Positions 2,611 to 64,000 of a stretch of DNA of 64,000 nucleotides are shown here, in pieces. The stretch comes from Climacium dendroides. Taxonomy: Eukaryota; Streptophyta; Bryopsida; Hypnales; Climaciaceae. Location of the stretch: positions 372,001 through 436,000 of the forward strand of contig OX467082.1 of the NCBI GenBank assembly GCA_950106755.1, in the 5' to 3' direction. A model generated the notes under the pieces. It was given only the letters and a program-made list of their open reading frames with translations, was not told the DNA's origin and did not search any database. Position 1 is the first letter of the stretch; every line of letters starts with the position of its first letter. The translations under genes and the position numbers were made by a program.

Positions 2611-2675
<65 letters not shown>

Positions 2676-14215: not shown

Positions 14216-17065
14216 TGTAGCAATTAGTCGGACCAGTATTCCTCCAGTTAGCCCTTAATTCACACCAAAGGCCTTCTTAGTGTAAACCGCTCCGGAATCG
14301 TTCCCACGAGGACTTGTGGATTACAGTTTTATAAGCTATCTCAATCTAAGCATTCACTTTTCTCTCCGTCAGACTATTCCGGACTTTAGGTCCAGTCCGA
14401 ACTCTAGTGCCGGATGGGTTTCGGAAGAATCCGAAAACATTCAGTGTCCCTTCCAGGATCCCTGGGTTTGGATGACGAGTGGCCAGATCCACCGTCCGGA
14501 TGCTTACCGTGTCCGGAAACACGCTCTCTTTCACTCTCTCTCTCTCATTAACACTAACCTCACTCTTTAGGGACCGGAAGTGTCCTCCTGTTCCGTCGCC
14601 TCACAAATCCGGAAAGATCTGGATTAGGTTACACAGGGACGGTCAAGAACTACAACGTCATTCTAACCTTTAACCGAACACTGAGCCTCCTGTCGACCGG
14701 CTGGTTTCTCCTGTACTTTCTTGAGCTTGCGCCGAGGCTTGACTTTATTCTACGAGGAATTCCGGCAATCCAGAATTCCGGCACTTCCGGCAATACTTCC
14801 ACACACGAAAGTTGCTAGCAGCCTCTCAGATACCCCTTTCACCTAAGGCTGTATCCTACACGCAGGCTATATCGGCATCCGAGCAATACTACACTAACTC
14901 TACTGCCGGAACCATCCGGTTGATCTCCCCCTCAAGTTAATACATCCGAATACTCTCACAAAATCGACTCTTGCCACACAAGGTAAGTTCTCAGTCCCGG
15001 AAACGCAAGAACGGACCCACACCTCTCACAAACATATACCGTACACAAGAAAGATAAGAGATTGGATACTCTAAACACTTTAGAATTAAACTCCGAAAAA
15101 GATACAATGCTGAAACTATGAGATGGCTGTGAATGACCAGAAAGGCCATTAAAACTCCTACTTATACTAAGACTAACGTCATCCTAAAAATCCTACAAAA
15201 CATTCCTATTGGTCCGCTAGATTTCCGGAAGATTCCAGATCCTATTTTTCCGGCTTGACGGCCGGACTTCGATATTGCCGCTATACTACACTACTGCAAA
15301 CTATTCCTTGGAATCCGGATCTTTGGGAGGAACATAGTCCTTCAGAAGATCCAACTTTACCTCCTTCCGGCTACTCTCCGGAGAAAATAGATTCGGACCC
15401 CTTTGGCCCCATCTTTGGACTTCCACAATACTGGTGTCCTTGTCTACACTCCGGGTCTCGACTATCTGAGTGTCCGGACTCCCCTAAGAATCCTTCTGGG
15501 TCTTCTTATGACGCGGAGAAGACTCCACCATCCGTCCGGCGTGAACTTCCGGAGAAGCACCTGTCAAGTCAATGGTCAGAGTCACCAAAAGCAGGTCTTC
15601 ACTTCCCGGAGGTACCACTGCTCCCCAGTCCACTCCTTCTGGCCTTCCGGCTGGTGGTGAAAGTTCCGGATTCACCGGTACCACCGGTGAGACCTCCGTA
15701 ACCATAGGTTCCGGATTGCTGCTTTCCGGAACCACCAAAGTCTGCGCTGACGGGGGAGATTGAGGTGCCGGATCCGACTCCGTAGAAATAAAGTACTCCA
15801 TCATCTCCCTCATCGCGGCCCGGGATGTATCCATTCGTCTTGCCTGCTCTAGTAAGCATTTGACAATAGGAACCCGGCTTAAGCTGACGGCTGCATCGAG
15901 GTTAGTTTCAAACAGATGGGCCTTGTTGATATAATCCGCCGGCACATCCAAAGAGCTTCGGAGCTGAGCTACACTTTGGCACAATGCCGCTATCTGCCGG
16001 CGATGGTCTTCTTCTGTGAGCCGGGCCGTCTCCTGGGCTGTGCGGAGGGTGCTCTCCAACTCCACACATCGGAATTCTGAGTTCCGGAATTGGTCTCGCA
16101 ACGTCTGGTTTTCTACACGCAACATCCCCAACTCCGTCACCAAAGTCTTCCATTCTTCTATGAGGAGGTCGTTCTACTACTCCGCTGCCACCAATGCATC
16201 TGTCCTCCGGAAGATGGCGTTCCGGTCGGTTAGTGCCATCTTCCGGCACACTCGTTTGAGGGCTCTATCATAGTTCTCACAGATCTGGGTGAGATCGTCT
16301 GCCCGCTACACCAGGTGTTGAGCCATCTTCTGGATGTCTTTTAGGGGCGTCCCTCCCAGTCGCATGGTGGTCCGATCCCTCTCCTCCACCTCAATCATCC
16401 GGGTCCGGGAGGGTCCGGCCTCGGCCTGAGTGGCAACGGTGTGTGGTTGTACCGGCCCAACCAGTTGCATGGATGGTTGGGCTTCCTTCGGAACAGATCC
16501 GGTCTCCGTCTTTACCTCCTGAACCTCTTCCTGTGGTTCCGGTGTGGGAGGCTCCTGTAACGGACTTACCGGCAACGTCCTATTCCGCCTTTTCCTCTTC
16601 CTTAGCGGAAAGACCGGCTCCTCTTCTTCTGTGTCCTCATCGTCCGGTTTGTCTCGAGGCGAGGGCTCCTCTCCTCCGTACTGTTGGAGTTGGACTAGGT
16701 CCTGATACGCACTCTCCTCGTTCGCCTTGAGCAAAGAGTGGTAGGCGTACAAATGAGACAAATACGCCGGAAGCAGACTCTGGCTCTTCTTTCTGGACTG
16801 GAGGGCACGCACCAGGTCTCCAACTAACTCATGGATGATGGCTACCCAGTCCATCATCATCTTTCCCTGGAGGCTCCCCAAGATGGTGGAGGCCACCTTC
16901 GCTACTACTCGCCGCAACTTGGTGGGATGGAAGATAGGGTTGAGAAACGCTATCACATCCCAGTACTCCGGATTCACCAGGTCGGAAACCTGGTGACCTT
17001 CCTTCGGGTTGGCGGGTGCCCGGAATTCGCCCTCCATCACCTCCTGGTTCTTCTCCATGACCTTG
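14216..17065 (-). mobile_element. LTR, subfamily 1, copy A (3' part of a split LTR)
   Basis: Read on the minus strand this is the 3' part of a long LTR that ends in GGTCCGACTAATTGCTACA at 14216. Its missing 5' part is copy C (20768-21170). The two halves are separated by the plus-strand solo LTR at 17066-20762. It was itself inserted into the subfamily-4 ORF ending at 14215. It contains most of the LTR-borne ORF and, at about 15163, the TATA-like box placed after the ORF stop. Confidence 0.85.
15301..17065 (-). pseudogene. LTR-borne ORF, subfamily 1, copy A
   Basis: The minus-strand ORF continues from copy C and ends at TAG 15301-15303. The two coding parts (20768-21105 and 15301-17065) sum to 2,103 nt, exactly the length of the ORF in copy B. 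It shows the family order: helical core with motifs PANPKEG, FLNPI, KVASTILG and YLSHLY, then an acidic linker, a basic patch (RKRKRRNR), and a C-terminal helical part (EQARRMDTSRAAMREMMEY). Premature TAG 16303-16305 replaces TGG of copy B, and TAG 16177-16179 replaces CAG. TAG 16174-16176 and a TAG near 15484 are also present. It is not functional. Confidence 0.75.
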
Positions 17066-17353
17066 TGTGGGAATGCGATCCCACATGCTAGACCCATAAT
17101 ACTAACATATGACGGAAAAATTCAAAAATTGTCTCCTTCAGAGGGAAAGTTTTTGAGGTCTCCTAGGAAGTAAGGCAAATTAGGAAAAAACGGATTTCCG
17201 GATCCGGAAAAATTTCATTAGGGCTAAAAACCTAAAATCCGGAACCCTAGAAAGTTCCGGATATCGGATGACGGCGCCGACCCTAAACCGGAAACCGGAT
17301 CCGTACTAGGGATAGGGTTTTGCCGCCAAAACGTGTCCCGTACATTGGGTCCG

Positions 17354-17360
17354 TATAAGA
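17354..17360 (+). promoter_or_regulatory. TATA box before the LTR-borne ORF (copy B)
   Basis: TATAAGA in GC-rich surroundings, 203 bp before ATG 17557. Comparable boxes precede the ORF at 44311 and, on the minus strand, at 40028-40035. Confidence 0.5.
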
Positions 17361-17556
17361 GGGGGACTGTAGCCGGCCGCGGGTACACTTATCCTCTTTC
17401 TTTTGTTCTTCCGCCGGCGTATTCCGTTTTCCTCGCTTCGTTAGAATTCCGGTAGACTGAGGGAATGTGTGAGTTGCGATTGTGTAGGGGTTACTAGAGT
17501 GACAGTTGTGAGCAGAGATTTAGAGAGAGATTGTGTGAGGATTGATCGTGAGCACA

Positions 17557-19659
17557 ATGGCTTCTAGGGCAAGTCGGCGGAAGTTGAAGGACTTGCCTGA
17601 GGATTCAGAGGATGAGGCGCCGGCACCTGTACCTCGACCAAGGACCATCCCGGTGATGAAGGTGGTTCCGGAGGTTCCCACGGAGGAGGACCGGCTGGCA
17701 CGCCTACGGGAGCATCTCCGCAACATGGGGTGTGATGGACTCCTAGAAGTGCCGTGGGGAATCCGAGAGGAGAGCCTGGTTTCGGACATACTTCGTCCGG
17801 AAAATGGTATCTTGGATACCACCATTCAGGCGAAATCAGACTAGTGGACGGTGAACACTTGGCGAGCCGTCTACAAGTTCCGGGAGGCGTCGGACAAGGT
17901 CATGGAGAAGAACCAGGAGGTAATGGAGGGAGAGTTCCGGGCGCCCGCCAATCCGAACGAAGGTAACCAAGTTTCCGACCTGGTGAATCTAGAGTACTGG
18001 GATGTGGTAGCGTTTCTCAACCCTATCCTCCATCCCACCAAGCCGCGGCGAGTAGTAGCGAAGGTAGCCTCCACCATCTTGGGGAGCCTCCAGAGAAAGA
18101 TGATGATGGACTGGGCAGCCATCATCCACGAGCTAGTCAGAGATTTAGTATGTGCCCTCCGGTCCGGAAAGAAGAGCCAGAGTCCTCTTCCAGCATATTT
18201 GTCTCATTTGTACGCCCACCACTCTCTGCTCAAGGCGAATGAGGAGAGTACGTATCAGGACCTAGTCCAACTTCAGTAGTACAGAGGAGACGAGCCCTCG
18301 CCCCGAGATGGACCGGACGATGAGGACACTGAGGAAGAGGAACCAGTCTCTCCGCTAAAGAAGAGGAAATGGCAGAATAGGACGCCGCCGGTAAGTCCGT
18401 CAGAGGAGCCTCCTACACCGGAACCACAGGAAGAGGTTCAGGAGGTAAAGACGGGAACCGGACCTGTTCCGAAGGGAGTCCAACCATCCTTGCAACTGGT
18501 TGGGCCGATACGACCGCACACCGTCGCCACTCAGGTTGAGGCCGGACCCTCCCGGACCCGGATGATAGAGGTGGAGGAGAGGGATCGGACAACCATGCGA
18601 TTGGGAGGGTCGCCCCTAGAAGACATCCAGGAGATGGCTCAGCATCTGGTGTGGCGGGCAGACGATCTCTTCCAGATCTGCGAGAACTATGATGGAACCC
18701 TCAAACGAATGTGCCGGAAGATGGCGCTAACCAACCGGAATGCCATTTTCCGGAGGACGGATGCATTGGTAGCAGCGGAGCAGCAAAACAACCTCCTCAT
18801 AGCAGAACAGAAGAATTTGGTAACAGAGTTGGGGGCGTTGCGTATAGAAAATCGGACGTTGCGAGACCAAGTCCGGAACTCGGAATCCCGCTGAGTGGGT
18901 TTAGAGAGCACCATCCGCACCGCTAAGGAGACAGCCCGGCTTACAGAAGAAGCTCATCGCCGGCAAATAGCGGCCTTATGCGAAAGTGTAGTTCAACTCC
19001 GGAGCTCTCTAGAGGTCCCGACAGACTATATCAACAAGGCCCGGCTGTTTGAAACTAACCTCGATGCAGCCGCCAGCTCAAGCCAGGTTCCTATCGTCAA
19101 ATGCTTACTAGAGCAAGCAAGACGAATAGATACATCCCGGGCCGCGATGAGGGAGATGATGGAGTACATTACGTCCATAAAGTCGGATCCGGCACCTCAA
19201 TCTCCCCCGTCAGCGCAGACTTTGGTGGTTTTGGAAAGCAGCAATCCGGAACCTATGGTTACGGAGGTCTCACCGGTGGTCTCGGTAAATCCGGAACTTT
19301 CACCACCAGCCGGAAGACCAGAAGGAGTGGACTGGGGAGTAGTGGTACCTCCGGGAAGTGAAGACCTGCTGCCGGTGACTCCGACCATTGACCTAACGGG
19401 TGCTTCTCCGGAAGTTCACGCCGGCCGGCCGGTACAGTCTTCTCCGCGTCATAAGAAGACTCAGAAGGATGTAAGAGGGAGTCCGGACACTCAGGTAGTC
19501 GGAACTAGGAGTGTAGACAGGGACACCAGTATTGTGGAAATCCCAAGATGGGGCCAAAGGGGTCCGAATCTGTTTTCTCCGGAGGGTAGCCGGAAAGAGG
19601 TAAAGCTGGATCTTTTGAAGGACTATGTTCCTCCTAAAGATCCAGATTCAAAAGAATAG
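17557..19659 (+). pseudogene. LTR-borne ORF, subfamily 1, copy B
   Basis: A 701-codon frame lying wholly inside the LTR. The start ATG is shared with copy C, and the TAG end is shared with copy A. The N-terminus has an Arg/Lys patch, then an MGCDGLL..PWGI motif. The middle has WRAVYKFR, an NP-E-G stretch, FLNPI, a KVASTILG block and YLSHLYAHH, followed by an acidic linker with a KKRKWQNR nuclear-localisation-like patch. The C-terminal half is helical (LTEEAHRRQIAAL onwards). Stops: TAG 17842-17844, TAG 18277-18279 (CAG in copy A) and TGA 18892-18894 (TGT in copy A). No protease, reverse transcriptase or zinc knuckle is seen. It resembles poorly described plant transposon proteins in general style only; the function is unknown. 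Confidence 0.75.
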
Positions 19660-19794
19660 TATACAGTAGTGTAGTATAGTGGCAATATCGGAGTCCGGCC
19701 GTCAAAGCCGGAAAAATAGGATCTGGAATCTTTCGGAAATCTAGCGGACCAATAGGAATGTTTTGTAGGATTTTTAGGATGATGTTAGTCTTAG

Positions 19795-19800
19795 TATAAG
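19795..19800 (+). promoter_or_regulatory. TATA-like box after the LTR-borne ORF (copy B)
   Basis: TATAAG lies 136 bp after the ORF stop. The same position is occupied in the other copies (23193, 24983, 46615, and on the minus strand 37915-37923 and 60767-60775). This is where the U3/R promoter of the genomic RNA would be expected. Confidence 0.5.
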
Positions 19801-20767
19801 TAGGACTTTTAATGACCTTTCTGGTCATTCACAACCATCTCATAGTTTCAGCATTGTACCTTTTTCGGAGTTTAATTCTAAAGTGTGTTGGAGTATCCAA
19901 CCTCTTATCTTTCTTGTGTACGGTATATGTTTGTGAGAGGTGTGAGTCCGTTCTTGCGTTTCCGGGACTGAGAACTTACCTTGTGTGGCAAGAGTCGATG
20001 TTGTGAGAGTATCCGGATATATTAACTTGAGGGGGAGATCAATCGGATGGTTCCGGCAGTAAGGTTAGGGTAGTACTGCTCGGATGTCGGTATAGCCTGC
20101 GTGTAGGATATAGCCCTAGGTGAAAAGGAGTATCTGAGAGGCTGCTCGCAAACTTCCGTGTACGGAGGTATTGCCGGACGTGCCCGAATTCCGGATTGCC
20201 GGAATTCCTTGTAGAACAGAGTTAAGCCCCGACGCAAGCCCAAGAAAGTACAGAAGAAACCAGCCGGTCGACAGGAGGTTTAGTGTTCGGTTAAAGGTTA
20301 GAATGTCGTTGTAGTTCTTGACCGTCCCTGTATGACCTAATCCGGAAGAGCTTCCGGATTTGTAAGGCGATGGAAAAGGAGGACACTTCCGGTCCCTAAA
20401 GAGTCAGGTTGCTATTAGTATTAGAGAGAGAGAGAGAGAGAGTGAAAGAGAGCGTGTTTACTGACACGGTAAGCATCCGGACGGTGGATCTGGCCACTCG
20501 TCATCCAAACCTAGGGATCCCGGAAGGGACACTGAAACGGTTTCCGGATCCTTCCGGAACCCACCAGATACTAGTATCCGGACCAGACCGAAAGTCCGGA
20601 ATAATCCGACGGAGAGAAAAGTGAGTGCTTAGACCGAGATAGCCTATGAAACTGTAATCCACAAGTCCTCGTGGGAACGATTCCGGAGCGGTTTACTCTA
20701 AGAAGGCCTTTGGTGTGAATTAAGGGCTAATTGGAGGAATACTGGTCCGACTAATCACTACACCTTG

Positions 20768-21170: not shown

Positions 21171-21196
21171 AACGTCCGACACGAGCTTCCATCATT

Positions 21197-22154: not shown

Positions 22155-22424
22155 AACCCCTTGAACTGTTCGCCCGTCCGCCAATAAAACCGCCCATCCG
22201 TCCACTCGCCTGTCCGCCAATAAAAACGCCCATCCGTCTATTCGCCCGTCCGCCAATAAAAACGCCTAAACCGCCCGCCCGCCCGTCTGCCAGTCTGACT
22301 GGCCCATCCGCTCGCCTGCCCGCCCGCAGAACGGCGACCGAGGACCGTCCGTTTGCATCCGCAGGGTCTGGACGTGCGGACGTCCGATTTTGGACGCAAT
22401 TTCGCTGCGAACGCACGTCCACGA
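22155..22424 (+). repeat. GTCCG-rich array 4, with a ~39-bp tandem repeat
   Basis: The first part contains about three units of a ~39-bp repeat, each including GTCCGCCAATAAAA. The second part is denser and ends in GGACGTCCG-type words. It directly abuts a truncated LTR ORF at about 22425, as array 3 does at about 13405. Confidence 0.8.
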
Positions 22425-23058
22425 CAACCCTGATCAACAAAGCCCAGCTATCCGAGGCCAACTTCGACGTAGCTGCCAACTCCAGCCAGGTTCCATCATT
22501 AAGTGCTTACTAGAGCAGGCGAGACGAATGGACGCCTCCCAAGCCGAGATGAGGGATATAATGGAGTACCTGGCCCCTATAGGGTCAGATCCGGTAAATC
22601 CTTCTTCCCCTTCCACCCAAACTTTGATGGTTCCGGAAAGTAAAGATCTGGAACCCATCGTTACAAAAGTATCACCAGTGGTACCTTCTGCTCCGGAACT
22701 CTTACCACCGCCGAAAAGAATAGAAGAGTTGGATTTGGGTGTCGTGGTACCCCAAGGTGGTGAGGAACTTGTTCCAATAACTCCGATCATCGATCTTACG
22801 GGTACTCCTCCGAAGTCGCGAGGAACTTGAACGATGCAGTCTTCTCCTCATCACAAACAGACCTGGAAGGATTCTCGAGGAAGTCCGGAAGTGCCGATAG
22901 TCGGAACCTAGAGTGTGGACAGGGACACCAATATCACAAGTCCAATTTGGGGAGCAAGAGGTCCGGATTTGTCTTCTCTGGGGAGTAGCCGGAAGCAGAC
23001 TAATCTCGACTTATTGAAGGACCTCATTTTCCCCAAGGATAAGGATCTGGTGGAATAG
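22425..23058 (+). pseudogene. LTR-borne ORF, subfamily 1, C-terminal part (copy D)
   Basis: Matches the C-terminal third of copy B (words CLLEQARRMD, IMEYL, PELLPPP, ITPIIDLTG). The correct frame is reached only after a frameshift near 22490, and another break lies near 22830. It ends at TAG 23056-23058. A remnant only. Confidence 0.7.
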
Positions 23059-24151
23059 TAGGTAGTAGAGTATGCTAGTAGTAGTACAGGAGTCCAGCCG
23101 TCAAAACCGGAAAAATAGGATCTAGGATTATCGGAAATCTAGCAAGCCAATAGGAATGTTTTCTGGGACTTTTAGGATGATGTTAGTTTTAGTATAAGTT
23201 AGGTTTTGATGGACCTTTCTGGTCATTCACATCCGTCCCATTATTTTCAGCTTGTATCTTTTTGAGCTTAATCCAAGTGTTTGGAGGTTTTCATTCTCTA
23301 TCTTTTTGTATTCGATGCATGCTTGTGGGGTGTGTGGGTCCATTCGTGCTTTTCTGGATGCTGAGAACTTACCTTGAATAGCAAGAGTTGACTTTGTGAG
23401 TGGTTTCCGGACGTCTCTGACTTGATGGGAAGATCGGCCGGATTGTTCCGATAGTAGTGTTAGTGTACTACCGCCTGGATGCCGGTATAGCCTGAGGGTA
23501 GGATATGACCTTAGGTGAAAGGGTATCTAAGAGGCTGCTAGCAACTTTCGTGTACGGGAGTTTTGCAAGACGTGCTCGAATTCCAGATTGCTGAAATTTC
23601 CCGTAGATAGAGTCAAAGCCCTGGCGCAACGCCCAAGAGAGTACGAGGAGATCCACCCGGTCGACGGGAGGCTCAGTGTTAGGGTAAGACTAGGATGTCG
23701 TTGTAGTCCTTGACCGTCCCTACGTGACCTGGTCCGATAAGCAATCCGGATCTGTAAGGTGACGGAACAGGAGGACACTTACAATCCCTGAATCGTTAAA
23801 TTAGTGTTAGTATTAGAGATTGAGAGAGAAAGAGAGAGAGAGCGCGTTTTCGGATACGGTAAGCATCCGGACGGTGGATCTGGCTACTCGTCACCCAAAC
23901 CCAAGGATCCCGGAAAGTGCGACTAAACGGTTTCCGGAATTTTCCGGAATCCATCCGGCACTAGGGGCCGGGCCGGACATGTGGTCCGGATTAGTAAGTA
24001 GGAGAGAAAGTGGAAGATAGGATCAAGTTAGCCTATGACTCTGTAAACCTCAAGTCCTCGTGGGAACGATTCCGGAGCGGTTTACTTTAAATGGACCTTT
24101 AGTGAGAATTAAGGGTTAACTGGAGAAATATTGGTCCGACTAATCACTACA
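22425..24151 (+). mobile_element. LTR fragment, subfamily 1, copy D
   Basis: The 3' part of a subfamily-1 LTR, entering within the C-terminal part of the ORF and ending at GGTCCGACTAATCACTACA (24151). The whole post-ORF region (23059-24151) matches 19660-20762 of copy B block for block, including a TATA-like box at 23193. The 5' half was lost at the junction with GTCCG array 4. Confidence 0.85.
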
Positions 24152-26022
24152 GAAGTATCCCAACTAGTGCACTGCCGGAAGCAGTGGCGAACTGCATCAG
24201 CAACCCTGACGAGGTTTGGAAGTCAGAGGAGAAGATGCTGAAGTAGAACATTAACTTGCGGAAGACAGACGAGTTGGTGCTCCGGTTGCAAGGGGAGATC
24301 CAAATCTTCCGGAAAGACTTGGAGACTAGTCGCGAGCAAGTGAAGATTGCGAGGTCTCTACAGGTGGAGACCAAGGTGACAATCGACCGGATAACCGCAG
24401 TAGTGGAGGCATCCCATGACGTAATGGCGAAGGCCAAGCTTTTTGATGAGGGAATGCATAAGGACCAAAAACCTTCTGATATTCGGATTGCCCGCATTCT
24501 AGCTGACTTCGTTGGAGAGATAGAAGAGACCATGAAGGAATTCCGGAAAGTCACTAAAGGGCAAGAGGAAAGTATCCGGAAGTTCTAAAGTGAGCTGATC
24601 TCTCTATCCGAGATTTCGATCCTGGATGAGTTCGATGATTTGCAGAATCTGGAAGGGAAGTTTGAGACTCAGGTCTCAAAAGAAAAGGAGGGAGGAAGGA
24701 CTTCTACTTCAGGGACTCCACGGACAATGGTAGGGACAACTTTCCCTGTAGAACCGGAACGAGTTCCGGAAGGGGGAGACAGGAGTAAGAACTTGAGTGA
24801 ACTCTCACCTATAGCTACTCCAAATAATGGTGGACCCCCTTAGAATGAGTAGGTAGTTAGGAATTTAGAGATAGGGAATTTTGTTAGACCGGACCTTATC
24901 CCGAAAAAATAGGAAAAGTTCAGATCCAAAAATCTTGGCTGGATCAGTGCCGGATTTCCAGGGACCCTCTTTGTAAATTCTGTATATAATTCAAGTCTCA
25001 AGCTTGAGACAAGGAGTTCTTTTTCTTGCATATGTTGTCTCCTTTTGTATTTTCTATCGTTTTCCTTGTCTTTCCAAGGAATGGCTGGGTGAGGAAATGA
25101 GAGATTGAATACAGATGAGCAGATTATAAAAGGAGCTTCTCCCCTTGGTGTGTTCTTGTGATTACATGTGCATGTGAACAAGTTGTAAGTGTTGGGAGTG
25201 AGTCAGGACACCTCAGTAGATTTAGAGTTCATTATTCCGGATGAGATAGCCAGTGTTAGGCTAGGCAGTAAGAGAGGAAATTCTCAACTGCGCTAGAGCT
25301 ACCAGATGGAATATCTGGATTAGCCTCCGATCGCTTGAGAGGTCTTGCCATCTGAAATAGTAAACAGAAGAATTCTAGATTGCGCTAGTCCGGGCGGACA
25401 CATTTGTAGCCACCTTAGTTTCGCACGGATCTGAGGAAACATTAAGGTCGTTGTAGTTGGAAAGGATCATACGGGGGATTTTTGTGTAACCTGCAGGTTG
25501 GGATCATTCCTAGTTTGTCGTGAAAGATCAAACTGGATCCTGTTAGAATAGGGAGTTAGATTAGTTGAGTGAATCTTCCATCACTCTAAAGACCGGAAGG
25601 AGAGGTGGGCCTACCTCTCTCAAAACAAGTGGCGGATCCTTCTGAAGTGCCAATAGAGGTTAAGCGAAACCGGAACGGAAACCGAGGAGGATGAGGTCCT
25701 AGGGCATAGTAATGAAGATCCGATTGGATGTGTGAGTTCCAGTTGGATTTTAGTTGGTTATGTGAACGGATTCTAATTCGGATCGGGTAGTAGCATAGTC
25801 CGGATTAGCGGATGGTAATCTAAAGGAGTTGTCTGGTTTTGAGGGGAAAAAGGTAAACGGGGAGAAAGAAGAGTACTTGAATTGATAATTATCCTCAAAC
25901 CACCTAGTAACACGAAACACTTCACAGAGTCTTTTGGGTTCGATTTTTAGAGTCACTTTGTTATGCTTTAAAGTGATTTTTGTGAGCATAATAGGGAATT
26001 TCACTTACCCTATGCTGCGACA
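24152..26022 (+). mobile_element. LTR fragment, subfamily 3, copy E
   Basis: The 3' part of a subfamily-3 LTR. Its last ~50 bp (GTGATTTTTGTGAGCATAAT to CTGCGACA, end 26022) match the minus-strand LTR end at 36894. A TATA-like box follows the ORF at 24983. Its 5' part is missing at the junction with copy D. The right end cuts the gene remnant at 26023-26486. Confidence 0.8.
24154..24842 (+). pseudogene. LTR-borne ORF, subfamily 3, C-terminal part (copy E)
   Basis: Collinear with the C-terminal half of the ORF at 38108-39721 (shared pattern KA.LF.E..HKD.K and a following VHIL/ARIL helix). It has an in-frame TAG near 24246 and TAA 24586-24588, both one C-to-T change from Gln codons. It ends at TAG 24840-24842. 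Confidence 0.7.
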
Positions 26023-36400: not shown

Positions 36401-37914
36401 GTGACCCATTGGCAACGCCTTGTGGTTTGGAGTAGTTGAAAAATGCCATGCATGACCTGTTGCATGCCCTTGAAGTGTTGCACAAGGCGGACTACACCTA
36501 CAGGGATCTGCGATGGCCAAACTGTATTCGAGTAAATGTTAAAAGTGAATGGAAGTGGGTGCTCATTGATTTGGAATATGGTGGACGAGATGGAGCAGAA
36601 TGGGAAGGTGATGGACTCGTGAATTGGGATGCGGGAACTTTGGAAGTCCGTGATGGAAGGAAAGTGTACACCAAGAGATCAGATATGTATGAGCTCGGGA
36701 AGCTTATACTGCAATGGCTGGATAGTCGCGGAGTGACAGAGATAGCCTTGGGGAAACAAAAGAGGAGCTTGTGGAGAAAGGTGAGGACCTAGGGAGAAAA
36801 GATGCAGAAAGAACGTGCAGGAGCAACGCAAATGCTTAAAGAAATCTGTCCTGAAAATTGTACACGCTGTGTCAAGTTTTGGGCGTAGTTGAGTGTCGCA
36901 GGACAGAGTAAGCAATTTCCCTATTATACTCACAAAAATCACTCTAGAGCATAACAAAATGACCCTAAAGATCGAACCCACGAGATCCTGTGAAGTAGCT
37001 AGATCTAACAAGGAGATAAATCCAATTAAACACTATAATTCTACCTTCTGGTTCTATCTCTGACGACCGGAATGTCAAACACCAATCGGAAGACTATGAC
37101 CGGATTATATCCTACTTCCGGTTTTACTAGTTCCCCGGTTTCTGGACTGACTTCTCAATTCTGGACCCTGCAACTTCCGGTCCTATGTACCCTCCTGGGC
37201 GGATCCAATCCGGTCTACCCTTCCGTACCCGGTTTAGTTTTACCTCTGTTTTACCATCAGAGGGTTCGCCGCTTGCTTTGAAAGTGGTAGGCCCACCACT
37301 CTTTTCGTGACTTATAGTAGCTGAAGACCCACTTACCTATCCACTGATCCCCTAACTAACACGGATCCGGTTTGGTCCTTCACAATAATCCGGATAGCAA
37401 CCCGGATCACAGGTCACACAAAGACCCCCCGTACGATCCTCTCATACTACAACGACCTTGACACTGATCCGTTCCGTACAAAGTTCGGTGGCTACAAGTG
37501 CATCTGTCCGTTCCAACACCCACGAAAGTTCTTCCGTTCACCCACAATGGTGGCAAGACCTCACAGGAGTCAAGATACTCGACCGGATTTCCCACCCAGG
37601 AGTTCTAGCGCAGCTAAGGAATCCCTTCCTATCCGCCTAGTCTGATCAACGGATCTCTTACCCGGAATGCTAAACTTCTGTAGCTGCTGAGGCACTGGAA
37701 TCCACTCCTCACTCTTCATAACCTACTCACATGTACCTAGAACCGGAAACATACATCAAGGGGAGAAACTCTATCAACACCTCCGTACTCACCTTCCTAT
37801 TCTGACTCCGTACACTCTTGCCAACATTCGGAAAAAAATACACCAGAGTTAGTTTAAAGGAGAGTACACAAGGAAATGCCAAAAGAACTCTCTTCCCTCC
37901 AGCTCAGAGACTGT

Positions 37915-37923
37915 TTTATATAC
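37915..37923 (-). promoter_or_regulatory. TATA box after the subfamily-3 LTR ORF
   Basis: TATATAAAA on the minus strand, 185 bp after the ORF stop; the expected place of the U3/R promoter for genomic RNA. Confidence 0.5.
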
Positions 37924-38107
37924 AAAAAGCAAAAAGTAAAAAGTGAATACATGATTTCCGCCTCTGAAGGCACTGACAATCCGGTCCTACCTTATCCTAA
38001 CCGGATTCTATTCCGGTTCCTATCTATAAGTCCTAGTTTTACAATCCTTCCTGTTCCGTCTCATACACTCGGGATCCAATGGTAGGGCTCTCATCAGGTC
38101 TCTCCAA

Positions 38108-39721
38108 CTACTTAAAGACCTCATTTAGATTCCGGTTCCGTTCCCCATCCGTAGGTAGAACCGGATGTTCTTCCTCAGCTTCCGGGGAGTCCAAATCTAT
38201 CGGCTGATGTCCGGTCAAGGGCGTCTCCTTCTTCGCCCTACTTGACTGGGGCGTCTTGTCCTTTCCCGGCTCTTGAGCTACATCTTCCGGAAACAAGTCC
38301 GGAAGAGAAATTTCTGAGAGCCGGACCGGAACTTTTGTCAACTTCTGGCTGCTCTCCACGATCCGGTCCGCTGACTCCCGTGCCTTGGATAGGAGCTTCT
38401 CTATCTGCTCCTCAAAATTGGTGAGGATGTGCACTACCCTGGTTCCGGATATCTTCTTGTCCTTGTGCACTTCCTCTTCGAACAGGCGTGCCTTGGTAAC
38501 TGCGGCTCCGGGTTCTCCAAGCACGTCCTTCACTTCTGCGGCCAACTTCTTCATTTCCTCCGCCATCTCCTTTGTCGCGGTGGCGTTCTCAAGCAACGCG
38601 AAAAGTTCGGCCTTGAGGGTGTCCACCTCATCATGCTGCCGCTTGCTGTCCTCCTTCATCTTCCGGAGCTCTTCCGGATTGATAACGCTCTCAGCCACCT
38701 TCCGCGGCAACTGACTGTCCGGTTCCGCTCCGATTAATTCCTCGATCTCCCCGAGCGTCCGCTTCTTAACTTCCCAATCCGCTCGGATTCCACAGAGGAT
38801 CCCAACCAACTCGTCGAACGGATCATCGGTTCCCGATCCGGATGCTACATCCGGTCCGGTTGGAGTATCACCTCTGCGCAGCCGCGGATGTCTCGGGGGC
38901 GTTCCTCGATTCCGAGCCGGTGTGGTCTTCTGCCTCTTGGCGGGAATATACAGTTCCTCCTCTTCCTCTTCTTCTTCTTCCTCCTCCTCCTCGGTTTCGT
39001 TTCCGGAATCCGCTTCTTGGTCGGACTCGGATTCTCCGTACTTCATGGTCCGCTCCTGGGCCTTCCATACCTTCAGCTCCACTTCCGTCAACAGTTCCTG
39101 TTGCTGGTAGAGGTGGTACACATAAGGGCACAGTGGGGTAGCCCTACTTCTCCCCACCCTTGTAGTAAGCTGGGATACCAGATCAAAGAAGATCCGGCCC
39201 CAGTCTACTTTCCGGGTTCCGCTCAGCGCTCCGAAAATCGTGTTAGCCAAGGTGATAGTCACCCTGGTGGGCTTTTCCGGATGCAAAACCGGAACCAGGA
39301 ATTGGAGCAGGCGTCGCTCCCGGTCATCGAGGCAGTCTTCGACCGCGTAGCCGTCCTTCGGGTTTACTACGCTTCCGAACTTGCCCTGGACAAAATCATC
39401 CTTCCGGTTGGCAAGACCGAGTCCTCCTGGCCGGAATCCGTATACGTCCCGCCACAAAGCCTCGGTCCATTGGACCGGATTCCCTCTCAGGGTGTTATCA
39501 AACTGATTCGATACGCCACTCAGGATTTCTCAAACCATCCTCTCATCTTTGAAACCCCAAGGTTTCAAAGATAATCCCTAACAACCCATCGACGCTAAGT
39601 CCTCCCTAAGCTCTCCCTTCTCCGGATCCTTGGTCGGCATGACCGGAACCACTTTTCTCAACCTTACTTCACTCGGGGGCGGGGTGCTAGAGCCTGGTCT
39701 CTTCCGGTTCAGCCGCGGCAT
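38108..39721 (-). pseudogene. LTR-borne ORF, subfamily 3 (full length)
   Basis: Minus-strand frame of 538 codons from ATG 39721 to TAG 38108-38110, wholly inside the solo LTR. N-terminus: a basic patch (RLNRKRPG), a Pro-rich bit, then LREDLASMGC and KPWGF, matching LREHLRNMGCDGLL..PWGI of subfamily 1. Core: LWRDVYGFR, NPKDGYA, FLVPVLHPEKPTRVTITLAN and YVYHLYQQQELL. Then come 14 consecutive Glu (near 38960) and a KRQKTTP patch, then a helical C-terminal half. The only stops are TAG 39578-39580 and TGA 39530-39532, near the N-terminus. The 449 codons after them are open, so this is the best-preserved subfamily-3 copy. Function unknown; acidic plus nuclear-localisation-like patches suggest a nuclear protein. 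Confidence 0.75.
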
Positions 39722-40027
39722 GAGGGTAGCTCTACCCGGTTTTCACTCTCTATAGTCCTAACAAGGGAACGCCGACACTCAGATACTCCGCCTGTAAACT
39801 GACCTATTGGCGTACTCGCACTCTCAGTTTTTCACGTATCCGCTCGCACTCCAGGTCTCACCTACTCATGTCCGGAGGAGATCTCTCCGTCTCACACCCC
39901 TCACTCACTTCCGGACCCTCTTGTACTTTCTCTTCCTTGCTATGGTCAACGATAAAGATGTCAGACGCTAAATCAGGACATGACAACACGTGGAAATCCA
40001 GAGACCAGAAAATGGGCAGGGTCAGGC

Positions 40028-40035
40028 TTTATATA
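40028..40035 (-). promoter_or_regulatory. TATA box before the subfamily-3 LTR ORF
   Basis: TATATAAA on the minus strand, 307 bp before ATG 39721. Confidence 0.5.
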
Positions 40036-40363
40036 GTCCTGACGCCCTGGACTGTCTTTATGACCAGTCGGATATCTGGTCCGGTTCTTGACATCCGGTT
40101 ATCTCCAATCCGGTCAACAAGATTCCGGTCGGAAATACTTATCCAGTTGTACATCTAATCCGTTCCACTTCTACCTAAAATCGGATTAGTTCCGTAAGGT
40201 CCTTTTGTGACTATTTTGGATTTATCTTTCTCTCTAGATGAATCTGGATACTCATTTTCTAATTTCCGGTTCGCTTAAAAAGGTTAACAAATAAAAATAA
40301 AAAATATGAGTTGTCACACTGAGTGTAGTGAGGGGCTCTGGTGGAGAGGATTCTGACATGTGA

Positions 40364-44028: not shown

Positions 44029-44310
44029 TGTGGGAATCCGGAATCCGGAATCCGGAAACGGATCGATAATACAAGAAGTAGGTGCGAAAAATAGAAAAAA
44101 ATAAAAAAATTTATAGTTAGAACGTGATTTTTGGATAAGATAACTTGAATTAGAAAATAAACGTTCCGGCACAACCTGTAACCGGAACTTATCCGGATTC
44201 ACCCGGAACACAGGAACCTACCGTATAGGTCTCGTAGCTACGGAAGTAGGATATCGTTAATACAACGGACCTGTGGCCGTTGTCTTGATAATCGTAAGAA
44301 GACAGTTTAG

Positions 44311-44318
44311 TATTTAAG
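44311..44318 (+). promoter_or_regulatory. TATA-like box before the subfamily-2 LTR ORF
   Basis: TATTTAAG, 143 bp before ATG 44454; conserved in copy 2 at about 61507. Confidence 0.45.
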
Positions 44319-44453
44319 CTATTTGCCTAGAGTTTTCCTCTTCACTTTCCTGTTTTGCTTTTTCTGAGACTGTCCATGTGAGTAGTTGAGAGAAAGAGTG
44401 GTGAGTTAGCGACTGAAGCAGGGTTACTTCTCCCTCGTTCTGACTTAGATCTT

Positions 44454-46403
44454 ATGGCATCCGGATCAGTACGGAAGGTAGCGGTATTTGCCCGGGTTAT
44501 CTCTCCGGCCATTCCGAATAACTCGGAACTACACAAGCAGTTAGAGGAGGACTTAACTAAGTTAGGGTGTGTCGGTCTACTACACTGACCATGGAACCTC
44601 AAGAGTGAAGATATGATTCAAGAGCTACTTCACGGTGTTCCGAATCAGTATGAGCTCACTTTGAGAGGGCGGCCAGTCGCGTGGACCGAGGACATTTGGG
44701 CGGACGTCTATCAATTCCGGAAGAGCGGGAACGGGTTAGCATCGAGGACGGACCGTTTTGTAGCTGGAAAGTTCACTGGGTTTGCAAACCCTAAGGACGG
44801 ATTCGCTATCAGCGAATGCAAGGACGAGAGACATAGGCGGATACTAGAATTTCTCATTCCCATCTTGTATCCGAAAAAACCAACACGGGTTACCATTACG
44901 GTGGCCAATACTATTTTCGGGGCTATGGAGAACCGAGTGGTGCACTGGGGTAGAGTCATAGCCGGGATCATGGCTAAGCTAGCGGATCATGTGACCCGAG
45001 CAAAGGCGAGTCCAGTTAGCACCTACTTGTTCCATCTGTACCATCAACAGGAACTTTTGAGTGCAGCGGAAGTAATCCAGTATGACACCGGAAAGGCAAT
45101 CCTGTCATACGGACTTTCCGGGGAGGAGGCGGAAGATCCGGTCGAGTCTAATCCGGAGGAACTTCCCGAGGAACGTTTGACCGATCCGAGGACCAAGAAG
45201 AGGAAGTCAATCAATCCGGGGTCGCGATCCAAGCCACAGGCGATGGAGAGGGGGGAGTCCAGCAAGGGACTTGAAGTGGAAACGGAATCCGCATTTTTCA
45301 ATGCGGGGCTCAAGTGGATACGTGAGGCCAAGGTACTCCACGACAGTCTGACGGATTTGGTGATAGATACCACGGAAGTTTTGAAGGTGAAGCCGGATCA
45401 GATCGTGGAAGCTGTCAAGCGATTGCCCAAGCCGGAAGATCTAACGAGGAAGGAGGAGCGGATCCAAGAGTTGGAGGCGGAACGGAACCAACTCCAGGCC
45501 CGAGTGAATTGGGCGAAAGGGAAAATGGCAGCTTCAAAGGAGAAAGAAAAGGAGGCTCTCGCTCTAGTCAAGAATCTATCCGAAGCAGTCAACATCAAAG
45601 CCAACCTTGTCACGAAGGCTGCCTTGTTTGACTCAAAGCTGATATCGGAAGGCCACATTACCGGAACCAAGGTGGTGACTATCCTTGTAGATTTCACTGC
45701 GAGGATAGAGCGAGTTTTGAAGGAGATCCAACAGCTATTGGTGACTATCAACCCAAATCAGGTGATGGATTTCTCCACCTTTTTGGAACTTCCTTTTGTC
45801 TCGGGTACCCCAGGGAGACTAGTGGCGGATCGTGCAACCCAGATGGAGGGATTGAGGGGGATACTCACACCAGCCAAGCATTTCGCCAGCAAGATGCGGA
45901 TGACGGAGCTGAATTTGAGGCCAGCTTCGAAACCAGAACTTGAGTCCAGCGTGAAATCGGTTCTGGTACCACCCAAATTCTCAACTCCAGAAGTTCCCAA
46001 GTTACAAACAATGCCGAATTTGATGATCGGATCATTCAAGGTTCCGGGACAGCAAGTCAGAGGAGACCTCATCAATCGGATCAGTGGAATGACCAATCTG
46101 GCTCGGACTAATCCGAAAGGATTTGTACACATGCAAGAGACCACGCCGGAAAAGAGAAGCAAACCCGCAACCTTGGAGGATACACCGCTAGAAAAAGAGA
46201 AGGAAGTTCAAGTCATTGAAGACTCGGAGGAGGAGAGTGCCCATTCTACTTTCGGACCTGAGGACGACAACGATCCGTCTCCCGCAACGTGTCATATCCA
46301 AACTCGAGCTACATCGAAGACTACGCCAGCTAAAAATACAAAAGGGACACCTACCAGTCAAGTAGGGAGCCGCTCAAAGAAAGGGCGGAAGCCAAAGCAT
46401 TAG
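44454..46403 (+). pseudogene. LTR-borne ORF, subfamily 2, copy 1 (one stop from intact)
   Basis: A 650-codon frame inside the LTR, from ATG 44454 to TAG 46401-46403. It has a single premature stop, TGA 44586-44588, where copy 2 reads CGA. After that stop 596 codons are open. Domain order as in the other subfamilies: N-terminal MASGSVRK, LGCVGLL..PW, then WADVYQFRKSG, NPKDGFA, FLIPILYPKKPTRVTITVAN and YLFHLYHQQELL. An acidic linker follows with DPRTKKRKS, then a coiled coil (RIQELEAERNQLQ, near codons 340-360), a DSKLISEGHITGTKVVTILV block, and a basic C-terminus (SRSKKGRKPKH). No gag zinc knuckle, protease, RT or integrase is seen. Likely a nuclear, possibly DNA-binding protein by composition only. 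Confidence 0.8.
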
Positions 46404-46614
46404 AATCCGTAGGAAAAGAAGTATAGGATCCGGATCGAGTTTCCGAGCATCGGCCCGGTTTCCAGAATCTTAGGCGAATAGTAAGGAAATCCGGTAATTT
46501 CGGACGATAGTTAGTAATCTTTCCGGATATCCCGGGGGATTCAGTGATTGGTTGCCTAGATTTCCGGGTTTCCTTTTCAGGCTGTTAGGAGTTGACTTTG
46601 GGTTTTTGTGTTAG

Positions 46615-46622
46615 TATTTTAA
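46615..46622 (+). promoter_or_regulatory. TATA-like box after the subfamily-2 LTR ORF
   Basis: TATTTTAA, 212 bp after the ORF stop; conserved in copy 2 at about 63836. Candidate promoter for the genomic RNA. Confidence 0.45.
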
Positions 46623-47583
46623 GGGCAGGCAAGTTAGTTGTCTGCCATTCCATCCTACTCCATTCTGTTTTAGCGCTTTCACGTGTGTATTACAATTTCC
46701 TTTTCTTAATCTAAGTCAACCAGGATACCTTTAGTTGCACTTTGTTTAGATAGGGTCTTTTGGCTGAGTGTATGCATGTGTATATTCTTGTACTGGAGAA
46801 AGAGAAGGGAGGGAAAGGAGGAATCCGGATCTTGGGCTACGATTCTCTTGGTGTTGAGCTGAGTGGAAGAGATGCGAGCTGAGTAAGGGAGTGTAAGTGT
46901 TACGTGGCTGTAAATTGCCGGAACGGCAATCTGGATAAGAAGGTAGAGGTCCCTGCGAGTCCAGAACCAGGAGGATTCTGTGCAAAGATAAGCAACCGCC
47001 AAAGGAAAGGAACTCCCGCTATTCCGGAAGGTCTACCCGCCTCCCCCTTTAAGTACATTGTTTTTTTTCTTGAGATTCTATTCCTTTGGGTCTATGAGTT
47101 CAGATCTGTCGTTGTAGTAAGAGAGGTGTGAGAATTACTTTGTGTGACTTGATTCCGGATCGGCCAATCCGGAAACTGTGAGAGAATACTCCTCCCTCTT
47201 CCTACAGCTGTGTTGTCTTGGGTGTGCTGTTTAGTAGATTTAGAGTATAGAGAGGTTAAATTGTACAAGTGGTGAGTCCCCACCCCTTTTAGATCAAGGG
47301 CGGACCCTCTAAGGATAAAACAGAGGCAATAAAAACTAGTGACGGAAGAGAGATGGAACTAAATTCCGGAGGTATCCGGATCCGGAACGGAATCCGGAAT
47401 GTACTAAGTTTCCGGAGTGAGGTAGGGAAAGTGAAAGAAGGGGGATTAAGTGAGTGGTCACAATCCGGATACTTCTAACTCAATCGATATCATACTAGAG
47501 TTTCCTAGAACAATAATTCGTGTCATCTTGCAACAATTTGTCGTTGTAAGGATACTTACGGCTAACTACGCGTACGACACTTT

Positions 47584-47603
47584 TGGCGCCGCTGTCGGGG
47601 AAC
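47584..47603 (+). other. Primer binding site, tRNA-Asp type
   Basis: TGGCGCCGCTGTCGGGGAAC lies 4 bp after the LTR end. It differs at three positions from the tRNA-Asp complement used by many plant Ty3/Gypsy elements. Confidence 0.88.
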
Positions 47604-47734
47604 TACTAAAAAATTATCGATAGAGTGGAAGATAGGAAAAGGTAGTTCAGGACGGTAAGCTAAGACTCAGCCATTCGCCGGATTGTAGACTAAGTTAATG
47701 AGGGTCAAATAAACAAGAATCTGATTCTAGCTTC

Positions 47735-48098
47735 ATGAGTAGGCCTCAAAGAGGAAATACAACTTTACGTCGGGCGGAACATCAAGAGGAAATAAATAGG
47801 CGAATAGTGGTGCACGGGTTACTAGTGTCACAGTTTGCAAAAGATCTGGTTATAATTCCTATTAGGCCGGAAGTACTTCCGGAACGTTCCCAAAGCCCTG
47901 AAGCAGTTGAGGAGCCAGAAGGAGAACCTGTTACCTCTGAAGAGGAGCAGTTCTCTGACGAATTGGATACCATGGTGACCACCACGCGTCTCCATTATAG
48001 TAGGTTCCGGGGAGACGGGAGTAAAGATGTAGATGATTGGATGGGGGAATTTGAAGCTACTACTATAGCTAATCAAGAAGATGTTACATTGGATGTAA
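47735..48098 (+). pseudogene. Ty3/Gypsy gag, N-terminal fragment
   Basis: A short acidic N-terminus leads into the start of a Ty3-type gag domain (RFRGDGSKDVDDWMGEFE). Similarity stops near 48098, where unrelated GC-richer DNA begins, although the frame stays open to 48259. No protease or polymerase follows. This ties the ORF-bearing LTR to a Ty3/Gypsy-type internal region. Confidence 0.75.
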
Positions 48099-48289
48099 TT
48101 TTTGACATAAAAACATGGAATTGTAACATGATGCGCAAAAAAATCTGTCAAGTTAAACGCGGGTTTCTTCTAGTGAAGGGAGCGACGGATGCAAGCAAAG
48201 CGCAGAAGGAGGAAAGGTTAGGGTTCCAGGTTGAGAGGACGCGGCAGCGCCATAGTTGAGGCATTAGGGCGTCGTGGTTGGCGCGGGAT

Positions 48290-49320: not shown

Positions 49321-49984
49321 CTACAGCTTTGCAATAGCTACATTCAGATAATTTACTTAGTTCGGAAGTATTTTAAACATTGAAGATCTAGATTCATCTC
49401 CAAATTTGATGATTTGAGAAAAAACATTGTAAACTATGATTTAGAAGAATATTTTAGAATTGGTATATAAATGAAAGATGTAGATTTCAATTTTTAAATG
49501 TTATTCGTACAGTTAGATCTTCTAATGCTATCACCAATCAATTTTTATAAATTAAAAAAAAAAATCAAAATTCCTTTTAAATTCAATTATAAGTAAAATA
49601 TTATTATTTTTTATTTATCTAGTTTTGAACTAAAAGTCAATGCAAATTGACCACTTGACATACTTCCACATTTGTAATTTTAGAATTGTATAATATATAC
49701 TAGAATATATATTTTAGAATTGTATAATATATTATATATTGTATAATATATACTATATATACTATTAAACTCTATAATACATTGTATCTATTTTGTTTAA
49801 ATTTTTTCCATTTTGATCAAACAATGGATTCAAGAGGGGTTTTACATTTTGGGAAGGCTTTAAGCATTTTAAATTCTAACAAACATGTAACAATCATTTG
49901 GAAGATCCTACCTTAAATGCTTGTTGCACCAAAAGGTGGTCTCAACAATATTTTGAAGCAAACAAATCCTAATCACATTGCTAT
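49321..49984. other. AT-rich spacer
   Basis: No gene is seen. It holds a few TATATAATA blocks near 49680-49760 and leads into the GGGTTTATTT array. Confidence 0.5.
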
Positions 49985-54160: not shown

Positions 54161-54310
54161 TTGAAGATTTATTTGAAAGTTTTACACAACAATTCTTATA
54201 AAATTCTAATGATGAATGGATAGCATAGCAAGCACCAACCCATTTCTTGCTCTGCATTTTATCTAATACATAAAAATTCTACTGAAATTTTGAGGATGAA
54301 TTCATTGGGT

Positions 54311-61230: not shown

Positions 61231-64000
61231 TGTGGGAATCCGGAATCCGGAAACGGATCAATAATACAAGAAGTAGGTGTGAAAAATAGAAAAAAATCAA
61301 AAAATTTATAGTTAAAGCGAGATTTTTGGACCAGATAGCTTGAATTAGGAAATAAGCGTTCTGGCACAACCTGTAACCGGAACTTATCCGGATTCACCCG
61401 GAACACAGGAACCTACCGTATAGGTCTCGTAGCTACGGAAGTAGGATACCGTTAATACAACGGACCTGTGGCCGTTGTCTTGATATCCGTAAGTAGACGG
61501 TTTAGTATTTAAGTTGTTTGCCTAGGGTTTTCCTCTTCACTTTCCTATTTTGCTTTTTCTGAGACTGTCCGTGTGAGTAGTTGAGAGAAAGAGTGGTGAG
61601 TTAGCGACTGAAGCAGGGTTACTTCTCCCTCGTTCTGACTTAGATCTTATGGCATCCGGATCAGTACGGAAGGTAGCGGTATCTGCCCGAGTTATCTCTC
61701 CGGCCATTCCGAATAACTCGGAACTACACAAGTAGTTAGAGGAGGACTTAACTAAGTTAGGATGTGTCGGTCTACTACACCGACCATGGAACCTTAAGAG
61801 TGAAGACATGATTCAAGAGCTACTTCACGGTGTTCCGAATCAGTATGAGCTCACTTTGAGAGGGCGGCCAGTCGCATGGACCGAGGACATTTGGGCGGAC
61901 GTCTATCAATTCCGGAAGAGCGGGAACGGGTTAGCATCGAGGACGGACCGTTTTGTAGCTGGAAAGTTCACTGGGTCTGCAAACCCTAAGGACGGATTCG
62001 CTATTAGCGAATGCAAGGACGAGAGACATAGGCGGATACTAGAGTTTCTGATTCCTATCTTGTATCCGGAAAAGCCAACACGGGTTACCATTACGGTGGC
62101 CAATACTATTTTCGAGGCTATGGAGAACCGGGTGGTGCACTAGGGTAGAGTCATAGCCGGAATCGTGGCTAAGTTAGCGGATCACGTGACCCGAGCAAAG
62201 GCGAGTCCAGTTAGCACCTACTTGTTCCATTTGTACCATCAACAGGAACTTTTGAGTGTAGCGGAAGTAATCCAGTATGACACCGGAAAGGCGATCCTGT
62301 CATACGGACTTTCCGGGGAGGAGGCGGAAGATCCGGTCGAGTCTGATCCGGAGGAACTTCCCGAGGAACGTTTGACCGATCTAGAAGAACTTCCCGAGGA
62401 ATGTTTGACCGATCCAAGGACCAAGAAGAGGAAGTCAACTGATCCGGGGTCACGATCCAAGCCACAGGCGATGGAGAGAGGGGAGTCCAGCAAGGGACCT
62501 GAAGTGGAAACAGAATCAGCATTTTTCAATGCGGGGCTCGAGTGGATACGTGAGGTTAAGGTACTCTATGACAGCTTGGCGGATTTGGTGATAGATACCG
62601 CGGAGGTGTTGAAGGTGGAGCCGGATCAAATTGTGGAAGCTGTTAAGCGACTGCCCAAACTGGAAGATCTGAAGAAAAGGGAGGAGCGGATCCAGGAGTT
62701 GGAGGCGGAACGGAACCAACTCCAGGCCCGAGTGAATTGGGCGGAAGGGAAAATGGCAGCTGCAAAAGAGAAAGAGAAAGAGGCTCTCGCTTTGGTCAAA
62801 AATCTATCCGAAGCAGTCAACATCAAAGCCGACATCATCACAAAAGCTGCCTTGTTTGACTCGAAGATGATATCGGAAGGCCACATTACCGGAACCAAGG
62901 TAGTAACCATCCTCGTAGACTTCACTGCGAGGAGAGAGCGAGTTTTGAAGGAGATCCAGCAGCTATTGGCGGCTATCGACCCAAACCATGCGATGGATTT
63001 CTCCACCTTTCCGGAACTTCCTTTTGTCTCGGGTACCCCAAGGAGACCAGTGGTGGATCGTGCAACCCGGATGGAGGGATTGAGGGGGATATTCACACCA
63101 GCCGAGCCTTCCGCTGGCAAAATGCGGATGACGGAGTTGAATTTGAGGCCAGCTTTGGAACCGGAACCTGAGTCCAGCGTGAAATCGGTTCCGGTACCAC
63201 CCAAATTCTCAACCCCGGAAGTCCCCAAGTCCCAAACAATGCTGAACTTGATGACTGGATCATTCAAGGTTCCGGGACAGCAAATCAGGGGAGACCTCAT
63301 TAACCGGATTGGTGGAATGACCATCAGGCTCGGACTAATCCGAAAGGATTTGTACACATGCAAGAGACCACGCCGGAGAAAAGAAGCGAACCCGCAACAT
63401 TGGAGGATATACCGCCAGAGAAGGAAAAGGAAGTTCAAGTCATCGAAGATTCTGAAGAGGAGAGTGCCTACTCCACCTCCAGAACGAAGACGACAGCGAT
63501 CTGTCTCCCGCAACGCGCCATATCCAGACTCAGGCCACAACGAAAACCACGCCAACAAAGAATACGAAGGGGACTCCTACCAGCCAAGCGGGGAGCCGCT
63601 CAAGGAAAGGACGGAAGCTAAAACATTAGAATTCGTAGGAGAAGTATAGAATCCGGATCGGGTTTCCGAGCATGGACCCGGTTTCCGGAATCTTAGGCGG
63701 ATAGTCAAGAAATCCGGCAATCTCGGACGGTAGTTAGTAATCTTTCTGGATATCCCGAGGTTTTCAGTGATTGGTTGCCTGGATTTCCGGGTTTTCTTTT
63801 TAGGCTTTTAGGAGTTGACTTTGGGTTTTTGTGTTAGTATTTTAAGGGCAGGCAAGTTAGTTGTCTGCCATTCCATCCTACTCCATTCGATCTTAGTGCT
63901 TTTACATATGTATTACGATTTCTTTTTCTTAATCTAAGTCAACCAGGGTGCTTCTAGCTGCACTTTGCTTAGACGGAATCTTTGGCTCAGTGTATGCATG
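61231..64000 (+). mobile_element. LTR, subfamily 2, copy 2 (continues past the window)
   Basis: Collinear with 44029-46770 of copy 1 from TGTGGGAATCCGG onward. The left flank is GTACC (61226-61230). It is inserted in the subfamily-4 ORF, so there is no polypurine tract before it and it is not the 3' partner of copy 1. Confidence 0.92.
61649..63629 (+). pseudogene. LTR-borne ORF, subfamily 2, copy 2
   Basis: Same protein as 44454-46403, with five lesions. TAG 61733-61735 replaces CAG of copy 1 and TAG 62141-62143 replaces TGG. An in-frame 33-bp tandem duplication at about 62350-62415 repeats EELPEERLTD. Single-base deletions lie near 63320 and near 63480; between them the original frame is lost, after the second it returns to the frame that ends at TAG 63627-63629. 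Copy 2 is 31 nt longer than copy 1, exactly +33 -1 -1. Copy 2 keeps CGA where copy 1 has its only stop, so the two copies decayed independently. Confidence 0.82.

What the first reader, a model, noticed from the sequence alone, without database searches (positions are those of the whole stretch)
44029..47579. Giant LTRs that carry their own protein gene inside U3
The 3.55-kb LTR (TG...CA, primer binding site directly after it) contains a 650-codon ORF. Solo LTRs at 17066-20762 (with an exact duplication) and 36894-40318 contain homologous ORFs of 701 and 538 codons. The ORF is therefore truly inside the LTR, not between LTRs, and would be duplicated in every insertion and survive LTR-LTR recombination. 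At least four subfamilies share one domain order (GC.GLL..PW; W..VY.FR; NP..G; FL.PI..P.KP.RV; YL.HLY; acidic linker; basic patch; helical C-terminus). ORFs in LTRs are rare. A nuclear accessory or anti-silencing factor is one idea, but that is inference.
Basis: partly seen in the sequence, partly recalled or inferred. Interest (0 to 1): 0.88.

Follow-up and report, generated by a model that had tools for sequence, protein, structure and literature searches.

The report
Retrotransposon LTRs carrying a conserved protein gene
In this plant-like genome, the giant end repeats of a family of jumping genes each contain a protein gene kept intact by natural selection, which may make a protein that binds those same repeats and helps them escape the host's silencing.

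Summary
The ORF really lies inside the LTR. An element elsewhere in the same genome has two ORF-bearing LTRs (98.7% identical, sharing two stop codons), a PBS, a polypurine tract and matching AGGGC target-site duplications; 13 of 30 copies examined are clean solo LTRs. The ORF is under purifying selection: median pairwise dN/dS 0.19 over 30 copies, against 0.22 for gag. Changes shared by copies are constrained; private changes are nearly neutral. The window's own copies carry stop codons; stop-free copies exist elsewhere. The elements are Ty3/gypsy; integrase ends at the polypurine tract.

Most likely: an LTR-encoded, sequence-specific anti-silencing or activating factor. LTR location and selection are shown; DNA binding and anti-silencing are inferred.

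The parts
44029..47579 (+). LTR A, a 5' LTR (TG...CA) carrying the gene
   Evidence: TG..CA ends, PBS directly after (locus L039 is this copy)
44454..46403 (+). LTR gene of copy A, 650-codon frame with a TGA at codon 45
   Evidence: ATG and TAG kept in 30 of 30 copies, this one included (the copies were best-scoring hits)
44311..44318 (+). TATA-like site P1 before the gene (in TAGTATTTAAG), candidate promoter of the gene
   Evidence: exact in 22 of 30 copies; not among the six best TATA-matrix matches of this LTR; inference
46615..46623 (+). TATA-like site P2 after the gene (in TAGTATTTTAAG), candidate promoter of genomic RNA
   Evidence: exact in 23 of 30 copies; overlaps the third best conserved noncoding 14-mer, but not among the six best TATA-matrix matches; inference
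47584..47601 (+). Primer binding site TGGCGCCGCTGTCGGGGA (tRNA-Asp type, recalled)
47735..48083 (+). Start of gag, broken off by unrelated DNA
   Evidence: 38 of 40 scored copies stop matching at this point; gag goes on in those read
61231..64000 (+). Second A-type LTR (copy B), cut by the window end, frame broken
17066..20762 (+). Solo LTR C1 with the gene 17557-19659 (three internal stops), TSD CCTTG
14216..17065 (-). Older LTR C2 of the same family, split by C1; its other part runs from 20763 to at least 21173
36894..40318 (-). LTR D with the gene (frame about 39723-38108 by reading; 473 codons open), flanks TTGAG/CTGAG
22417..24151 (+). 3' part of a C-like LTR (C3)
24152..25680 (+). Piece of a D-like LTR that adjoins C3
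58699..61229 (-). C-related LTR (C5) interrupted by copy B

Best explanation
These are Ty3/gypsy retrotransposons whose LTR is also a complete gene. Shown: the LTR holds a conserved gene for a protein with a predicted N-terminal domain, an acidic linker, a basic patch and a predicted coiled coil, and that gene is in 5' LTRs, 3' LTRs and solo LTRs. Inferred: a promoter before the ORF (P1) drives its mRNA, a second one after the ORF (P2) starts the genomic RNA, and the protein enters the nucleus as a coiled-coil oligomer. There its N-terminal domain binds the many CCGG-cored motifs of the LTR and keeps its own family transcribable, by removing or blocking DNA methylation as VANC does or by plain activation. 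Gene and target sites sit together in one repeat, so every new copy and every solo LTR carries both.
Confidence: 0.55

Rival explanations
1. The protein is a plain transcriptional activator of its own LTR (Tat- or Tax-like), without any effect on silencing.
For: Motifs lie on both sides of the ORF near the TATA-like sites; NLS-like patch, acidic stretch and predicted coiled coil.
Against: The best fold match is an anti-silencing protein, not an activator.
Confidence: 0.21
2. It is a structural or particle accessory protein (env-like or gag-like), placed after pol as env is, whose gene was taken into an expanded LTR.
For: At the 3' end the LTR gene is the next gene after pol: in 3 of 4 loci the integrase frame ends 14 bp before the LTR.
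Against: No signal peptide or membrane segment noticed on reading (no predictor was run); NLS-like patch in 7 of 7; no gag or env model among the Pfam rows.
Confidence: 0.09
3. It is a suppressor of RNA silencing or an RNA-binding factor acting on the genomic RNA.
For: An extra ORF of active sunflower Tekay elements was reported to resemble dsRNA-binding proteins (PMC12844716, passage).
Against: No RNA-binding domain among the Pfam rows; the fold match is to a DNA-bound protein; a family-specific DNA motif exists.
Confidence: 0.08
4. A chance or captured ORF without function.
For: 27 of 30 copies, and all those in the window, hold stops.
Against: dN/dS 0.19 and frame-specific; homologues at 20-52% identity.
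Confidence: 0.02

Closest known systems
VANC anti-silencing proteins of Arabidopsis VANDAL transposons (MULE DNA transposons)
   Same: TE-encoded; best structural match of the N-terminal domain; short motif enriched in the DNA of the same TE and different between families (PMC5735166, passages)
   Different: Here in the LTR of a retrotransposon; no sequence or Pfam similarity found; motif is CCGG-cored, not YAGTATTAY, and not confined to noncoding DNA; effect on methylation unknown
MMTV sag and other retroviral genes reaching into the 3' LTR
   Same: Protein gene inside the LTR (for sag recalled); MMTV has two promoters in its LTR (PMC2723071, passage)
   Different: Ty3/gypsy element; larger ORF with nuclear features; no MMTV Sag model among the Pfam rows
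Extra ORFs of plant LTR retrotransposons (Athila ORF1, Ogre, Retand/Grande, Retrosat2 ORF0)
   Same: A conserved extra gene in large Ty3/gypsy elements
   Different: Those are described as in the internal region (PMC11963269) or upstream of gag-pol in an element with LTRs over 3.2 kb (PMC3485330); passages seen in PMC6317226 and PMC7264820 mention no ORF inside an LTR

Membership tests
Ty3/gypsy (Metaviridae) LTR retrotransposon | Reverse transcriptase of the Ty3 type | tested here: met
   P0008 from L070 matches 4ol8 (RT/RNase H, E 8e-18) and Ty3 polyprotein 7q5b (3e-17); Pfam RVT_1 only 0.011, under its cut-off
Ty3/gypsy (Metaviridae) LTR retrotransposon | Two LTRs, PBS, PPT and TSD in one element | tested here: met
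   C3 element: L062 and L053; the insert that splits the 5' LTR was not read
Ty3/gypsy (Metaviridae) LTR retrotransposon | Integrase after RT, gag with zinc knuckles | tested here: inconclusive
   integrase-like frame before the PPT in 4 loci, reaching it in 3 and CCHC-like motifs in gag, both recognised by eye; no single copy was read from RT to integrase
OTA (Athila/Tat) lineage | Place in an RT-RH-INT tree, extra RNase H for Tat | not tested
   no whole pol was read and no tree was made
VANC | DUF1985 and DUF287 domains (PMC5735166) | tested here: not met
   neither is listed for 14 members at E<=10; HMMER filters drop very weak matches
VANC | Fold of the DNA-binding part of VANC21 | tested here: inconclusive
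VANC | Short target motif repeated in the noncoding DNA of the same TE | tested here: inconclusive
   TCCGGA or ACCGGA clusters by family, but also in the ORF, in D more than in noncoding DNA; binding not tested
VANC | Encoded by a VANDAL-type MULE | tested here: not met
   it lies in the LTR of a Ty3/gypsy element
VANC | Causes loss of DNA methylation on its own TE | not testable with these tools
   needs methylome data
Retroviral U3 gene such as MMTV sag | ORF inside both LTRs | tested here: met
Retroviral U3 gene such as MMTV sag | ORF upstream of the genomic RNA start, in U3 | tested here: inconclusive
   TATA-like sites both before and after the ORF

The most novel reading that the evidence does not exclude
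The LTR is a self-contained selfish unit: promoter, gene for a sequence-specific anti-silencing protein, and the array of its binding sites, all inside one repeat. LTR-LTR recombination, normally the end of an element, would then leave a working helper gene with its own target, so solo LTRs could keep the whole family unsilenced in trans, and LTR size would be explained by selection to keep gene and targets together. This would be a VANC-like system in retrotransposons rather than DNA transposons, with protein and motif diverging among subfamilies.
Probability: 0.33. Interest if true: 0.93.

Novelty: new variant of a known kind. Interest (0 to 1): 0.86.

Why it matters
In the accounts I saw, extra genes of plant LTR retrotransposons lie outside the LTRs; one inside the LTR changes what a solo LTR is, from a dead scar to a possible gene. 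If the protein is an anti-silencer acting on motifs in the same repeat, it would show how large LTR families escape methylation and would extend VANC-type anti-silencing from DNA transposons to retrotransposons. The genome also holds subfamilies with diverged proteins and diverged motifs, so co-evolution of protein and target can be tested directly.

Full report
What was checked. It looks like a land plant, perhaps a bryophyte, but that is my reading and was not tested. LTR A is at 44029-47579, followed by a PBS at 47584-47601 and the start of gag at about 47735. In the window gag is broken off at about 48083; 38 of 40 scored copies stop matching the window there, and those read go on into gag with CCHC-like knuckles. 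A protease-like frame (by eye; no Pfam match) and a Ty3-type RT follow in locus L070, where DNA with a DUF7869-like frame interrupts RT (likeness to the window's DUF7869 ORF by eye). In four 3' LTR loci an integrase-like frame precedes the polypurine tract (G/A)AAAAAGGGGTAA; in three of them it ends 14 bp before the LTR, in L066 it breaks earlier. No chromodomain and no other extra ORF was noticed there; the stretch between RT and integrase was not read.

The ORF is inside both LTRs. Of 73 scored ORF matches, 30 were cut out as loci L039-L068, the window copy included. By their flanks: 4 are 5' LTRs with a PBS, 4 are 3' LTRs with a PPT, 13 are solo LTRs with a perfect 5-bp duplication, 2 (L046, L068) are solo with 4 of 5 bases, 2 (L040, L045) have exchanged duplications, 1 (L062) is the split 5' LTR of the element described next, and 4 are truncated or rearranged. 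That element lies on the minus strand of contig C3. Its 5' LTR (L062) breaks off at LTR position 3372 and resumes at about 3369 in the PBS-bearing match, some 5 kb on; the DNA between was not read and is taken as an insert. Its 3' LTR (L053) follows a PPT. The two LTRs are 98.7% identical over 3327 bp, the closest of all 435 pairs (next 96.1%). Both ORFs have the same two stops, codons 82 and 420 counting ATG as 1, and AGGGC flanks both outer ends.

Selection. Over 30 copies the frame 44454-46403 has median pairwise dN/dS 0.187 in 435 pairs. Summed over pairs, pN/pS is 0.21 in frame, 1.00 and 1.38 in the wrong frames, 0.66-0.76 in the 3' noncoding and 0.53-0.83 in the 5' noncoding part; by region it is 0.41 for residues 1-53, 0.16 and 0.13 for 54-120 and 121-220, and 0.20-0.28 after that. 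Private changes have N/S 0.87 of expectation, changes shared by three or more copies 0.37, as expected if selection acts while elements move and copies decay once inserted. gag of 26 of 28 loci gives 0.224. The copies were the best-scoring hits, so intact frames are over-represented; this biases counts of intact copies more than it biases the wrong-frame comparison. In the C family of the window, C1 against C2 gives 0.21 and 0.27 in two separate parts, C1 against C5 0.18-0.19 and C2 against C5 0.55. Matches without stops: 19 of 73 for A (this includes the window copy, whose stop lies upstream of the query) and 32 of 90 for D (both counted by eye).

The protein. D and C1 are 35% and 21% identical to A. 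Two searches of 5.8 billion proteins gave 6 and 11 rows, 11 different relatives in all; their sources give no organism, and P0005 and P0011 (83% and 98% identical to A, listed with contigs of the same length) may be pieces of one copy. No Pfam family fits: scattered hits to single members, the best CENP-H at 0.0039 in one; positions were shown only for the first members, where they lie in the coiled-coil part. The AlphaFold2 model of P0004 with 14 sequences is confident for about residues 11-220 except 66-75, disordered at 224-281, then mostly helical to 433; mean pLDDT is 64.5. An NLS-like basic patch follows the domain in 7 of 7 long members; acid-rich stretches lie in the linker or the tail.

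Promoters. Each of A, C1 and D has a TATA-like site before the ORF and one after it. In D these are the two best matches of the whole LTR to a TATA matrix typed from recall; in C1 they are second and third, after a site inside the ORF; in A neither is among the six best, though the words around them are exact in 22 and 23 of 30 copies. This is inference.

Placing it. It works like VANC in my best reading, but it is not filed as a VANC: sequence domains are not met, the host element differs and function is untested. Extra ORFs of plant elements are described as internal in PMC11963269 and as upstream of gag-pol in PMC3485330; the passages I saw of PMC6317226 and PMC7264820 mention none inside an LTR. 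Reports of VANC I saw concern VANDAL DNA transposons (PMC5735166, PMC10398659, PMC13317346, PMC12844716; passages). My searches for a gene inside a plant LTR found none in their listings, within one open-access library.

Noticed in passing
L040 (C37:31715002-31716789) and L045 (C39:106704-108491): Two otherwise ordinary LTRs have swapped target-site duplications (ATATG left and CACTT right in one, CACTT left and ATATG right in the other), as a reciprocal exchange between chromosome ends through these LTRs would leave.
   Followed up: partly
14082-25680 and 58699-64000: LTRs of these families are inserted in each other several times, often antisense inside the LTR gene (C1 in C2, C2 in a C5-like piece, B in C5); possible insertion preference for their own LTRs.
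   Followed up: partly
56423-57346; also L070 minus strand 2653-4002: DUF7869 ORF (E 3e-35), and by eye a close relative inserted inside the RT gene of a gypsy copy: a mobile family whose mechanism is not clear to me.
   Followed up: no
C38:30087876-30091676 (L010) against 47300-48100: A second place matches across the same break in gag at 95% identity, which suggests a duplication of this part of the genome.
   Followed up: no
49981-51500; also in L069: Long tandem array of diverged T-rich units (GTTTATTTTGGGG-like) near the broken element; a similar-looking frame is read in L069.
   Followed up: no
54310-55107: Tandem repeat with a period of about 195 bp.
   Followed up: no
32738-33475: HARBI1-like transposase fragment (DDE_Tnp_4, E 0.001, under its cut-off).
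   Followed up: no
3165-6327 and 10531-11553: RING-finger-like ORF with neighbouring long ORFs, and a divergent protein-kinase-like ORF (E 7e-5, under its cut-off).
   Followed up: no
P0006: A relative of the LTR protein is named rRNA processing protein Krr1/Pno1 by its source, most likely a wrong name.
   Followed up: no
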